Of a DNA stretch of 64,000 bases, positions 328 to 5,233 are shown piece after piece (within the stretch, counting starts at the first letter, position 1; each line of letters opens with the position of its first letter). The stretch is from Peribolospora baueri. Taxonomy: Eukaryota > Basidiomycota > Peribolosporomycetes > Peribolosporales > Peribolosporaceae. The position numbers and the translations under genes were made by a program. The stretch is from assembly GCA_029717555.1 (NCBI GenBank), contig JAMDHS010000008.1, forward strand, positions 248,001 through 312,000, in the 5' to 3' direction. The notes beneath the pieces are model-generated. The model saw nothing but the letters and a program-made list of their open reading frames with translations, was not told the DNA's origin and searched no databases.

Positions 328-1805
328 ATGACGTCCGACAAGAATAAGAATATCGAGTCCTTCTACGTCGACGCCGTCCTTTTCGTGAGTCGTCGTGGAC
401 CTTGTGGCGGGAGCTGCTCGCACACGAGCCGCTTCGACTGACCGCCGCCCATTGCTTCCCGACCCTTTTTGTGTCGCGCGCCACCGCCACCGCCACCGAT
501 ATGATTAGGACATGGTGAGCAGCAACTCACAGCTGTCCTCGCACGGGCCACGACCGTCGGTCGATCGATCTGACTGACACCTTCCTTCCTTCACCTCCAT
601 CTTCCACAGGACGGCACGCTCGTCGACTCGATCGCCGCCGTTGAGGCCGCCTGGGGCGCCGTCGCGGAGGAGATCGGCCAGGACCCAGACTACGTGATCG
701 CTGCCACGCACGGCAAGCGGGCTGTGGACAACCTGAAGCAGTTCAAGCCTCACATCAAGGAACACGAGATGGACCAGGCGGTGGTCAATTTCGAAAAGAC
801 GATCCTCGAGTTTGCCGACGGCAGTCGCACCCCTTCCCGCCCTTCCTCGCGGCGGAACAGCAAGTCGAGCAGCCGGAGGCCGTCCCAGTCCGGTAGCCGT
901 CGTCCTTCCCAGACGATCAGCCGGAGGCCGTCGGAGAGTTTGAACGGCGGCGGCGGCGGCGTGAGCGCGTTCGGACTCGCCCACGGCCTCAGCAAGCTCT
1001 CGACACTGGACAAGAACAAGGGAGAAGAGAAGATCAACGAGAGCGCGATCGAGGATGACGATGACGAGCCTCGCCCCTCCAACTCGAGTCCCGCCGCCGA
1101 CAGCGGCGTGGATCTCGAGGACGACGCGGAGAATGTGGAGGAAGAGGCGTTCGACGGCAGCATCCGCATCCTCCCCGGCGTGCGCAACATGATCGACGCG
1201 ATCCCCAAGGGCAAGTACGCTGTCGCCACCTCGTCCGCGAGGACGTATGCGTACGGCGCCATGGAGCGCGTCGGTATCGTCCCACCCGAAGTGACCGTCA
1301 CCGCGGAGCACCCGGCTCTCAAGCGCGGCAAGCCTCATCCCGACCCCTTCCTCCTCGCCGCCAAGCTGCTCGGCTATGACCCGGTGCGTACGTAACGGAC
1401 GGCGCCGTCGGCTCGCCCGTCACTTGACTGACCGATATGTTTACTCGTTCGTTCTCACAACAGAAAAAGTGCCTGGTCGTCGAAGATTCTCCCTCCGGCA
1501 TCCGCGCCGCCGTCGCCTCGGGCGGGACGACGATCGCGGTGTGCACGTCGCACGCGCGCGAAAAGATCAAGGACTGTGGTGCGCAATACCTCTTGGACGA
1601 CCTCCGCGCCGTCACGGTGGAGCACGAGGCCGACGGGAGGCTCAAGGTGACCATCGACCACTCCTTCGTTGCTCCCCCCGAGGACGAGGAGACGCTCCAG
1701 CACGCGCACGACGACCTCAGGGCCGCCCACAAGGCCGGCAAGGACGCGGTGGAGAAGAAGAAGCTGGAAGAGCAGAACAGCGCCGCCCCCGCCATCAGCG
1801 CATGA
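328..1805 (+). CDS. HAD phosphatase, glycerol-3-phosphatase (GPP1/GPP2) like
   Basis: Exons 328..384, 509..514, 610..1383 and 1464..1805 join to 392 residues. All HAD motifs are present: FDMDGTLVDS (nucleophile Asp20, acid/base Asp22), ATSS at about 227-230, Lys262 in RGKPHPDP, and VVEDSPSG with Glu286-Asp287. By family it should hydrolyse glycerol 3-phosphate to glycerol in the cytosol, for osmolyte synthesis and NADH balance; 2-deoxyglucose-6-phosphatase activity cannot be excluded. The usual length is about 250 residues. The excess is a Ser/Arg- and acid-rich insert at about residues 90-204 holding four RRxS sites at Ser105, 113, 121 and 129. Exon 2 is only 6 nt (GACATG) and supplies Asp20-Met21. 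All four junctions are phase 0, and the ATG at 328 is the only one that gives the motif I beta strand. Confidence 0.85.
509..514 (+). other. 6-nt microexon encoding catalytic Asp-Met
   Basis: The upstream intron 385..508 ends in TTAG and the downstream intron 515..609 begins GTGAGC and ends CACAG. The six bases GACATG between them restore the invariant FDMDGT motif. Joining 384 directly to 610 keeps the frame but drops the HAD nucleophile. Confidence 0.8.
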
Positions 1806-2401
1806 CCCCCAAACATCGACCGTAGCTTCGACACGCGCCGACGACGACGACGAACGAAGCATCCACATCTCTTAAAAATATCTTCTCTTTGCCCTTCTTG
1901 ACTCTCTCTGCCCGTCGTCGTCACTGCCGCCCCACTGCCACAGCCTCGTCTCTACGGTACACTCCCAGTACCTACCGCGACGTGAGGTCCCACTCCAGCG
2001 CCCTTTCTTGCACCGCGATTCGCCCTTTTCTCTCGTCCATTTTTTTCTTCTTTCCATCCATCCATCCATATGACCTGCCTCCCCCCCAATGTACAAATAG
2101 CTGTTTCTATACGCCCTTTTTCAGATGTCGGGCCCGGTGTTCATCCCCCGCGCGGTCAGCCAGTCAGGCAGCCAAGTAGTACTACGAGCCTTGCCTGGCC
2201 CTTCCTTCTTTCTCCGCAGAACTCTGCTGCCTCGTGTGTCGCGCGCCTTGACTCTTCAGTCGTTTCAAACTTTTTGCAATGGAGACGGATCCTCGATAGA
2301 AAGCCAAAACCAGCGAGCGAAGCATCCCTGAGGAATATAGATAGGCTGGGGGACGTGGACCCAAGGTGGTGGAAAGAAAGAAAGCAAGAAAGCGTCCTTC
2401 T
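1806..2401. other. Convergent 3' region between phosphatase and LEU1
   Basis: Pyrimidine-rich sequence between two convergent genes, holding their 3' untranslated regions. I see no further gene, RNA or repeat of note. Confidence 0.5.
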
Positions 2402-5233
2402 TCACCACTCCATACCCTCCTTCTTCTTGCCGCCAACCGGCTTGAGCTTTTTAGTCCCGAGAGCAGCGAGGCTGAGCCAGGGCTGCCTGCGCTGCTCGAA
2501 TTCCCTGATCTTGTCCTCCTGCTTCAGCGTGAGGCTCACGTCGTCGGTGCCGTTAAGAAGGCACTCGCGCACGAACGGATCGATCTTGAACGGTACCTCC
2601 TCCCCGTTCGGGCGGCGGATCACCTCAGCCGCCAGGTCCACCTCGAGCTCCCTGCCCGCCTTGGCGTCCTCGGCCAAAGGCGCAAGAGCTTCCGGCGTCA
2701 GCGGAATGTTCAGAAGACCCTGGGAGACGTAGACGATGACAAGGGGAGGGGAACGAACGATAAGTGATGGAATTCTCAGCTGGTGAAGAAGGATCTAAGG
2801 AGAAGGTCGCTCACGTTCTTCCCAGAGTTGTTGCGGTAGATGTCGGCAAACGAGAGACCGATCACACAGCGGATTCCAAAGTCGGTAAGCGCCCAAGGGG
2901 CGTGCTCTCGAGAAGAGCCACAGCTGGGCGCGACGGCGTACGGAAAAAAGGAGATGACGACGACACTTCTCAGTCTACGAAGCTGATGACGCCTGGCCAT
3001 CACGACCGAAACTCACCCAAAGTTGGGGCCGGTGACGACGAGAATCTTCGCCTTGCGATAAGGCTCCTCGTTGAGCACGAACTCCGGGTCCTCCTCGCCC
3101 GTCTTGGGATCATAGCGCATGGGATGGAAAAGGGCGACGCCGAGACCGGTGCGCTTGATGGTCTTCAGGAATTGCTTGGGGATGATCATGTCGGTGTCCA
3201 CGTTGGCCATCTCCAGAGGCGCCGCAATGCCTTTGAGCTGCGTGAACGCCTGCATGCCGCCTCCGCTCGTGCTGATCGCACCCTTGGGAGAGGCGCTAGA
3301 GGAGGAAGGAACATCGCGCAAGGCGTCCAAGTCCGACGTGGCCGGGGCGGGAGCCGGGGCGTGTGCGCCGTCCGAGCCGGCAAAGTCGTTGGTGAGGTAC
3401 ATCTTGGAATCGGAGATCTTAATCTCGAAGGTCGGCTCCGAGGCGGCATGTCCTGGTCGGGCGCCGGAGACGAGCTTGCGCACATCCGTCAAGTAGCCGG
3501 TTACGGCAGCCGCGGCAGCCATAGCGGGTGAGAGCAAGTGGGTGCGACCGCCAGCGCCTTGGCGACCCTCAAAGTTGCGGTTCGAAGTGGACGCACACCG
3601 CTCGCCCGGTGCGAGCTGGTCAGGGTTCATGCCAAGGCACATGGAGCAGCCAGCCTCGCGCCAGTCGAAGCCGGCGGCGATGAAAATCTTGTCCAGACCC
3701 TCCGCCTCGGCCTGCTTCTTGATGAGACCCGATCCAGGAACGAGCATAGCGTAGACGTGGTCGGCGACCTTGCGACCTTTGAGCACGCGAGCGGCCGCGC
3801 GAATATCCTCGATGCGCGAGTTGGTGCACGAGCCGAGGAAAACCTTGTCGACCTTGATGTCTTCCATCTTGGTGCCCGGCTCAAGGCCCATGTACTTGAG
3901 CGAGCGGATCATGCCCGCCTTCCGTACCGGGTCCTGCACCTCGTCAGGGTTCGGGACGGTGCCGGTGATGGGCACAGCGTCCTGAGGAGACGTACCCCAG
4001 GTGACGGTGGGCACGATGTCGGCGGCGTTTACACGAACCTCAACATCGTACGTCGCGTCCGGGTCAGAGGGGAGGGTGCGCCAGTATGCGACAGCCTTCT
4101 CCCACTCGGCCGGGTCTTGCGGCACGAGAGGGCGGCCCTTGAGGTACTCGAACGTGGTCTCGTCGGGGGCGATCATGCCAGCGCGAGCACCGGCCTCGAT
4201 GGACATGTTGCAGATGGACATGCGCGCCTCCATGCTGAGCGAGCGAATGGCCGAGCCGCAGAACTCGATGACGCAGCCAGTGCCTCCGGCGGTGCCGATG
4301 ACGCCGATGGTGTGGAGGACAATGTCTTTGGACGTGACGCCTTCCGCGAGTTCGCCGTCGACCTGGATGCGCATGTTCTTGGAGCGCTTCTGGAGGATGG
4401 TCTGGGTGGCGAGGACGTGCTCGACTTCGGAAGTGCCGATGCCGAAGGCGAGCGCACCGAAAGCGCCGTGAGTGGAGGTGTGCGAGTCACCACAGACGAT
4501 GACCGCGTCGGGGATGGTGAAGCCCTGTTCAGGGCCGATGATGTGGACGATTCCCTGACGCTTGTCGCTCATGCCGAAAAACGTGAGGCCGAACTCGGCC
4601 ACGTTGTCCTCGAGCGTCACACATTGCGTGCGCGAGTCGGCCTCGCCAATGAACGACTTGGTGTCCTTGTAGTTTTTCCGATCGACAGTGCTGTTCGCCG
4701 CAGAATCGGAGAATGATCAGCTCGACGCCCTGCGGCATGCTCTCGCGAAACAAGAGATGGGAAGGCTTCACAAGGGACGCTCACGGGATATTGTGGTCCA
4801 AGGTGGCCAGAGTGCAGTCCGGGCGTCGGACCTTGCGACCAGCGATTCGCCTTACAGTATTCAATAGGGCAACGAAAAGGAGGGGGATACGATGAGTGCC
4901 AACGTACGCAGCTGAGGCCGGACCTGTACAATAAGTAGCCTGTGGGGGCGGCAACTCACAGTCCTTCGAACGCCTGAGGGCTGGTCACCTCGTGGACGAG
5001 GTGCCGGTCGACATAGATCAGGCAGGTGCCGTCGGCCTCCTAGCAAGAGGTGCGAGATCGAGGGTGGGATAGAAGGGAAGTAAGCCGAGATGAGCGACGA
5101 CGGCCGACGAACGACTCGAACGTGGTGAGTTCTCTCTCTCTTTCGTCATCGACCGAGCCGGCTCTGCGTGATCGGCGCTCACCTCGTGCACGATGTGCGA
5201 GTCAAAGACCTTCTGGTAGAGCGTGCGTCCCAT
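2402..5233 (-). CDS. LEU1: 3-isopropylmalate dehydratase (fused large and small subunits)
   Basis: Minus-strand exons 5183..5233, 4960..5039, 4785..4850, 3017..4690, 2815..2923 and 2402..2719 give 765 residues, close to the 779 of yeast Leu1. It isomerises 2- and 3-isopropylmalate, the second step of leucine synthesis, using a 4Fe-4S cluster. The N-terminus [17 protein letters not shown], then [19 protein letters not shown] and [13 protein letters not shown], are family signatures. Cluster cysteines are Cys354 (GSCTNSR), Cys414 and Cys417 (CSMC). An Ala/Pro/Ser-rich linker at about 475-550 joins the LeuC-like and LeuD-like parts; the latter has [15 protein letters not shown] and [13 protein letters not shown]. 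Phases close at every junction. One acceptor (start of exon 3) is AAG rather than CAG or TAG. Confidence 0.95.

What the first reader, a model, noticed from the sequence alone, without database searches (positions are those of the whole stretch)
385..609. A 6-nt microexon carries the catalytic nucleophile of the GPP-like phosphatase
Seen: two introns (385..508 and 515..609) flank the six bases GACATG. With them the protein reads FDMDGTLVDS, the invariant HAD motif I; without them it reads FDGTLVDS, still in frame. Known: the first Asp of DxD is the phospho-acceptor of all HAD phosphatases. Inferred: skipping would yield a full-length protein lacking the nucleophile, so splicing of a tiny, hard-to-recognise exon could act as an activity switch for glycerol or osmotic control, or produce a dominant partner. 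I know of no description of this arrangement.
Basis: partly seen in the sequence, partly recalled or inferred. Interest (0 to 1): 0.8.

Follow-up and report, generated by a model that had tools for sequence, protein, structure and literature searches.

The report
Six-base exon carrying enzyme's catalytic residue
In a glycerol-phosphatase-like gene of what looks like a fungus, two codons of the active-site motif sit alone on a six-base exon between two introns; the exon looks real, but nothing here shows that cells skip it to switch the enzyme off, and plants have a closely similar arrangement.

Summary
At the stated coordinates the gene reads ...VDAVLF | GTGAGT...ATTAG | GACATG | GTGAGC...CACAG | GACGGC..., and the six bases restore HAD motif I (FDMDGT). 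Model enumeration, shuffles, a control on other predicted introns, profile scores and a paralogue with the same 14 bases uninterrupted support a real microexon. No transcript was available.

The activity-switch idea is unproven. For it: the microexon's acceptor is weak, exon 3's is strong, both phases are 0, and a small hairpin could cover the exon. Against it: skipped exons are about 3% of alternative-splicing events in surveyed fungi, where intron definition is favoured, and very short exons are reported in basidiomycetes. The consequence is also slightly mis-stated: the skipped product VLFDGT keeps one Asp after the strand and loses the second Asp and loop length.

My call: a constitutively included microexon, spliced one intron at a time; a new instance, in another enzyme family and probably another kingdom, of a known kind.

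The parts
328..384 (+). Exon 1, MTSDKNKNIESFYVDAVLF (ends in phase 0)
385..508 (+). Intron 1, 124 nt, GTGAGT...ATTAG; weak acceptor
438..442 (+). Only CTNAY/TTNAY branch-point candidate in intron 1 (CTGAC, A at 441); the next AG is the microexon acceptor at 507-508
   Evidence: the AG-free run is not significant by itself (3,891 of 20,000 shuffles)
507..539 (+). Possible RNA hairpin: AGGACA (507-512) with UGUCCU (534-539) and GUGAG (515-519) with CUCAC (526-530), covering acceptor AG, microexon and donor
   Evidence: post hoc, z -2.0 for 508-538
509..514 (+). Microexon GACATG (Asp-Met) of HAD motif I DMDGT
515..609 (+). Intron 2, 95 nt, GTGAGC...CACAG; branch candidates CTGAC at 570 and 574 (also CTCAC 526, TTCAC 590); strong acceptor
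610..1383 (+). Exon 3: rest of motif I (DGTLVDS), low-complexity insert, VATSS (motif II), KRGKPHPDP (motif III)
1384..1463 (+). Intron 3, 80 nt, GTGCGT...AACAG
1464..1805 (+). Exon 4 with VVEDSPSG (motif IV); stop codon at 1803-1805

Best explanation
The gene encodes a Gpp/beta-phosphoglucomutase-like HAD phosphatase whose motif I is split by two phase-0 introns. The 6-nt exon GACATG is normally included in the mRNA. The likely route is one intron at a time by intron definition: intron 2, which has the stronger acceptor, may leave first, fusing the six bases to exon 3; intron 1 then splices from branch point 441 to the first AG downstream (507-508). The main product is the full 392-residue enzyme. 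Failed splicing would mostly give intron retention with a stop codon, and rarely an in-frame form without a complete motif I. Shown: sequence anatomy, scarcity of other solutions, profile fit. Inferred: splicing itself, its order, constitutive inclusion, enzyme activity and substrate.
For: Motif I is completed exactly; VATSS, KRGKPHPDP and VVEDSPSG are present, and the protein aligns with yeast glycerol-3-phosphatase 1, 2qlt, the best of 45 solved-structure hits. With the exon against without: PF00702 75.8 and 59.6 bits, PF13419 68.5 and 57.8, PF13242, which lies elsewhere, 27 and 27; all 21 NCBIfam families listed for the skipped form score higher with the exon. The one other Gpp-like gene that one search found in this genome has the same TTCGACATGGACGG uninterrupted in one exon. 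Chance controls. Donors 385 and 515 are ordinary for this genome (39 and 28 of 72 predicted donors score lower; 32 and 32 of 91 in the second set). Retaining intron 1, intron 2 or both gives an early stop. Literature passages: exons as small as 1 bp in Cryptococcus neoformans (PMC3990503); 6-bp shortest exon in Phanerochaete P450 gene models (PMC1184071); skipped exons 3% of fungal alternative-splicing events and intron definition proposed (PMC3925392).
Against: No RNA evidence. The microexon acceptor is among the weakest (1 of 72, and 7 of 91 in a set chosen without an acceptor matrix, score lower), while exon 3's is among the strongest (70 of 72 and 87 of 91 score lower), which could favour skipping. 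Branch point to acceptor is long: 67 nt by the script's count, against a median of 38 in the 29 of 91 introns with a CTRAY candidate; 9 of 29 are at least 60. In a plant test a 6-nt exon placed in the potato invertase gene was skipped or mis-spliced in over half of transcripts (PMC4674806 passage). No orthologue in another species could be compared. The intron sets are ab initio, small and not RNA-verified, and that the genome is fungal is itself inferred.
Confidence: 0.75

Rival explanations
1. Regulated switch: the microexon is skipped under some condition by pairing donor 385 with acceptor 609, giving a 390-residue protein without a complete motif I.
For: Exon length and phases keep the frame. 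Weak acceptor at 508 and strong one at 609. Possible hairpin over the exon and both its splice sites. Precedents seen as passages: glucose-dependent 20-nt microexon of Xlr2 in Trichoderma virens (PMC11121469); skipping of a 15-nt exon of rtnA in Aspergillus niger and a 33-nt one in Neurospora crassa (PMC6616335); cold-induced exon skipping in potato invertase (PMC8483784).
Against: No transcript or condition tested. Skipped exons are 3% of fungal events (PMC3925392). One in three exon lengths keeps the frame by chance. A second Gpp-like gene with motif I intact in one exon up to its Gly exists.
Confidence: 0.15
2. Single 225-nt intron: the six bases are not an exon and the protein is a pseudo-phosphatase reading FDGTLVDS.
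For: Donor 385 is ordinary and acceptor 609 strong, and my first intron finder, which was not told of the microexon and demands 120 coding bases on each side, picked 385-609 as one intron.
Against: It needs chance to place exactly D-M between an AG and GTGAGC (0 of 20,000 shuffles with GTRAGY; 0 of 81 introns). The other motifs are intact, as expected for an active enzyme. Most profile scores drop.
Confidence: 0.05
3. A different exon supplies DxD: ATG at 88, a 14-nt exon 390-403, then exon 3, reading MAIVVDLDGTLVDS.
For: It is one of three motif-giving models in the enumeration.
Against: Its acceptor is the GTGAG of the intron 1 donor and its second donor is GTGGCG, both poor; a TATATA at 137 lies downstream of that ATG.
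Confidence: 0.02

Closest known systems
Plant GH32 (acid invertase, fructosyltransferase, fructan exohydrolase) 9-nt mini-exon DPN
   Same: A microexon of a few codons carries the catalytic nucleophile Asp; its loss by deletion in a chicory allele is in frame and judged to inactivate (PMC4477480 passages); it can be spliced differentially (PMC9412663 passages). In potato invertase the second intron leaves before the first (PMC4674806 passage).
   Different: Unrelated enzyme family (HAD phosphatase), apparently a fungus not a plant, 6 nt not 9; the plant exon is transcript-verified.
Trichoderma virens Xlr2 20-nt switch-like microexon
   Same: Fungal microexon that encodes part of an essential motif (two zinc-cluster cysteines) and is included or not by glucose (PMC11121469 passages).
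   Different: Ascomycete transcription factor; [quoted passage not shown] RNA-verified, unlike this one.
Skipped 15-nt and 33-nt exons of fungal rtnA
   Same: Small in-frame fungal exons that are sometimes skipped (PMC6616335 passages).
   Different: Skipping there runs through a twin intron (stwintron); no active-site residue is involved in the passages seen.
Very short exons in basidiomycetes (Cryptococcus neoformans, Phanerochaete P450 genes)
   Same: Exons down to 1 bp and 6 bp reported (PMC3990503; PMC1184071; passages).
   Different: No active-site exon is described in the passages seen.
Saccharomyces cerevisiae Gpp1 (2qlt) and Cryptococcus neoformans Had1/Gpp2 (CNAG_01744)
   Same: HAD phosphatases of the Gpp type; best solved-structure match; Had1/Gpp2 is osmotic-stress related (PMC5919746, PMC6901960 passages).
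   Different: The yeast chain aligns without the low-complexity insert. The exon structure of the Cryptococcus gene was not found: no 'intron' or 'exon' in either paper.

Membership tests
HAD superfamily, Gpp / beta-phosphoglucomutase-like phosphatase | Motif I DxDGT | tested here: met
   DMDGT at residues 20-24 when the microexon is included
HAD superfamily, Gpp / beta-phosphoglucomutase-like phosphatase | Motifs II (S/T), III (K) and IV (acidic pair) | tested here: met
   VATSS, KRGKPHPDP and VVEDSPSG present, aligned to 2qlt; motif names recalled
HAD superfamily, Gpp / beta-phosphoglucomutase-like phosphatase | Profile match above curated cut-off | tested here: met
   PF00702 75.8 bits (cut-off 26.4), PF13419 68.5 (23.8); HAD-IA v3 74.1 (29.4). 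The finer NCBIfam equivalogs listed, all bacterial-archaeal models, stay below their cut-offs
HAD superfamily, Gpp / beta-phosphoglucomutase-like phosphatase | Glycerol-3-phosphate phosphatase activity | not testable with these tools
   substrate inferred from the yeast Gpp1 match only
Catalytic-residue microexon (kind known from plant GH32) | Exon of at most about 15 nt between two spliceosomal introns, carrying a residue of the catalytic motif | tested here: met
   by sequence model only
Catalytic-residue microexon (kind known from plant GH32) | Inclusion in mRNA shown by transcripts | not testable with these tools
   no RNA data held
Catalytic-residue microexon (kind known from plant GH32) | Conserved across relatives | not testable with these tools
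Switch-like regulated microexon (Xlr2 type) | Condition-dependent inclusion | not testable with these tools
   no RNA data
Switch-like regulated microexon (Xlr2 type) | Splice-site asymmetry that would allow skipping | tested here: inconclusive
   weak acceptor 508, strong acceptor 609; compatible with skipping but not proof

The most novel reading that the evidence does not exclude
A hairpin-gated catalytic microexon: the RNA stem 507-539 hides the weak acceptor, the six bases and the donor of intron 2, so that temperature, salt or an RNA-binding protein sets the share of enzyme that has a complete motif I, with a dead in-frame form otherwise. It would parallel, by convergence, the plant invertase mini-exon.
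Probability: 0.07. Interest if true: 0.75.

Novelty: new member of a known kind. Interest (0 to 1): 0.42.

Why it matters
If real, two unrelated sugar and polyol enzymes, in plants and in a probable fungus, each isolate a catalytic Asp on a microexon, which makes it testable whether such exons are accidents of intron gain or are kept as a cheap on/off control. It also means that an annotation that misses the six bases would make this enzyme read as a pseudo-phosphatase; such misannotation of microexons is described in plants (PMC8831610 passages).

Tried and rejected
Examined and rejected: a single 225-nt intron, an alternative DxD exon (390-403), an alternative donor at 366 (loses VDAVLF). 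Introns 1 and 2 as copies of a repeated intron family: each matches only itself in the genome at E <= 0.001. The AG-free run before acceptor 508 as proof of use: not significant, 3,891 of 20,000 shuffles. Stable structure of the whole 225 nt: z -1.61, 14 of 200 shuffles as stable; of 443-508: z -0.05, 88 of 200. The hairpin 507-539 depends on the window chosen: 0, 6, 46 and 69 of 126 other predicted donors fold at least as stably in four windows, and 12, 16, 22 and 27 of 126 have the donor at least as much paired; it is only a lead. Relatives in viral contigs: none by tblastn for exon 3.

HAD survey of the genome: PF13419 (1 match), PF00702 (17 matches) and the pattern TTYGAYNTNGAYGGNAC (3 hits, 1 in the reversed control; one reads FDVDGTLSPARQ, the other two are unclear). 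None was examined for a microexon except the C48 paralogue, and the PF00702 loci were not inspected one by one, so this says little on how common such exons are. Species identity was not settled: aromatic-lyase matches could not be cut out. Rfam and tRNA scans of the window found nothing. No structure prediction was tried, because the spliced protein is not contiguous in the DNA. In one search I scored intron 3's acceptor one base off; one search has the right base.

Papers not held: PMC86406, PMC1369924. Searches for a description of this arrangement (open-access papers; several lists were capped, e.g. 20 of 91 and 8 of 2,642, which was badly aimed) showed none for a HAD phosphatase; two searches showed the plant precedent. 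All papers cited were seen as passages, not read whole.

Full report
What is there. The window is C167:248001-312000 of a 22.1 Mb, 178-contig genome; G+C is 0.57-0.66 in 8-kb steps. That it is a fungus is inferred: a compact genome with short spliceosomal introns and a nearest solved relative from yeast; I did not establish the lineage. It begins with a plus-strand gene whose first exons read MTSDKNKNIESFYVDAVLF (328-384), DM (509-514) and DGTLVDS... (610 onward). The two introns are 124 and 95 nt with GTGAGT...TTAG and GTGAGC...ACAG ends. A third intron, 1384-1463, precedes the last exon. The protein has 392 residues. It matches HAD hydrolase profiles (PF00702 75.8 bits, PF13419 68.5 bits), and its best solved-structure relative is yeast glycerol-3-phosphatase 1, 2qlt, E 4.3e-21. 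The substrate is an inference.

Is the six-base exon real? No RNA is available, so the case rests on sequence. I listed open models from an ATG in the first 420 bases to exon 3 with one or two GT-AG introns (at least 35 nt, middle exon up to 150 nt): 12 and 321 models. Three contain a hydrophobic-DxDGT motif; two use 509-514 (the second loses VDAVLF) and one uses poor splice sites. In 20,000 dinucleotide shuffles of 391-603, none gave AG|GAYNNN|GTRAGY with introns of at least 50 nt; 131 gave the looser AG|GAYNNN|GT, 33 of them with a hydrophobic second codon, and 2 had that with GTRNG. Among 81 other predicted introns of 110 nt or more, 0 had AG|GAYNNN|GTRAGY, 1 had any AG|N6|GTRAGY and 1 had AG|GAYNNN|GT. 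Profile scores fall without the exon: PF00702 59.6 against 75.8 and PF13419 57.8 against 68.5, while PF13242, elsewhere in the protein, stays at 27; all 21 NCBIfam families listed for the skipped form score lower than with the exon. The other Gpp-like gene that one search found (C48, about 14.5-15.9 kb, minus strand; sequence) reads MPTEIIEVHTVLFDMDG in one exon, with the same TTCGACATGGACGG, and has its intron two codons later, after the Gly. It is a distant paralogue (31% over 121 C-terminal positions), so the arrangement is not simply shared.

Splice signals. I trained splice models on 264 kb of this contig without RNA. One set, chosen with the matrices, has 72 introns after leaving out this gene; another, chosen without an acceptor matrix and with GTRAG donors only, has 91. 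Donors 385 and 515 are ordinary (39 and 28 of 72, and 32 and 32 of 91, score lower). The acceptor of the microexon is poor (1 of 72 and 7 of 91 score lower), and that of exon 3 is excellent (70 of 72 and 87 of 91 score lower). Intron 1 has one branch candidate, A at 441, and the first AG after it is the microexon's; such an AG-free run arises in 3,891 of 20,000 shuffles, so it is only consistent. The branch-to-acceptor distance, 67 nt, is long but within range: 9 of 29 introns with a CTRAY candidate have 60 or more. These sets are small and ab initio, may overlap, and the training was changed after a failed run. The first finder, unaware of the microexon, chose 385-609 as one intron.

A hairpin. 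Bases 507-539 can fold as AGGACA/UGUCCU plus GUGAG/CUCAC, covering the acceptor AG, the exon and the donor; the core 508-538 folds at -11.7 kcal/mol, z -2.0, 8 of 200 shuffles as stable. Against 126 other predicted donors the rank depends on the window: 0, 6, 46 or 69 are as stable or more. I noticed it after the fact and without comparative data, so it is a lead, not a result.

What skipping would do. Joining 384 to 610 keeps the frame and gives 390 residues, VLFDGTLVDS. One Asp still follows the strand; deleting DM or MD gives the same protein. What is lost is the Asp-x-Asp spacing, hence the second Asp, and two loop residues. Loss of activity is likely but inferred. Retention of intron 1, of intron 2 or of both gives an early stop.

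How it most likely works. Fungal introns are proposed to be recognised as units, and skipped exons are 3% of events in surveyed fungi (PMC3925392, passages); exons as short as 1 bp are reported in Cryptococcus neoformans, where exon skipping also occurs (PMC3990503, passages). In potato invertase the intron after the 9-nt exon leaves before the one ahead of it (PMC4674806, passage), and in a plant survey the intron upstream of a constitutive microexon is more often delayed than the one downstream (PMC8831610, passage). A weak upstream and strong downstream acceptor here fits the same order. Against ease of inclusion, a 6-nt exon put into the potato gene was skipped or mis-spliced in over half of transcripts (PMC4674806). 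I favour constitutive inclusion with some retention, 0.75, over a regulated switch, 0.15.

What is known. Plant GH32 enzymes carry the nucleophile Asp on a 9-nt mini-exon (PMC4477480 and PMC9412663, passages); a chicory allele that has lost it by deletion is transcribed in frame and judged inactive, and the mini-exon is said to be differentially spliced under some conditions. Cold-induced exon skipping is described for a potato invertase transcript (PMC8483784, passage; that the skipped exon is the mini-exon is recalled). Fungal precedents for small regulated or skipped exons are Trichoderma virens Xlr2 (PMC11121469, passages) and rtnA (PMC6616335, passages). My open-access searches, with capped lists, showed no HAD phosphatase with a motif-I microexon. 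The finding is thus a new member of a known kind, in a new enzyme family and probably a new kingdom.

Noticed in passing
window 610-1383, residues 102-129 of the protein: Four RRxS motifs at residues 102, 110, 118 and 126, exactly 8 residues apart (RRNSKSSS RRPSQSGS RRPSQTIS RRPS), inside a low-complexity insert that the yeast Gpp1 alignment skips. They look like basic-directed kinase sites (PKA-type, recalled). A Cryptococcus neoformans Had1 phosphopeptide RRASQSG... is reported in PMC5919746 (passage). Phosphorylation may be a likelier control than exon skipping.
   Followed up: partly
L005 (C48), minus strand, about bases 2027-3418: Second Gpp-like gene with FDMDG in exon 1 and an intron between the Gly and Thr of DMDGT, so motif I is also interrupted there, at a different codon.
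   Followed up: partly
window 137 and 102, 201: TATATA element and two AGGGG/CCCCT stress-element-like pentamers (name recalled) upstream of the start codon; short enough to be chance.
   Followed up: no
window 3019-4713, minus: Aconitase-family gene (PF00330, 544.1 bits) with Aconitase_C, convergent with the phosphatase gene; reads like 3-isopropylmalate dehydratase (name recalled).
   Followed up: no
L048: FDVDGTLSPARQ, resembling phosphomannomutase motif I (name recalled); the open frame ends soon after, perhaps at another intron near motif I.
   Followed up: no
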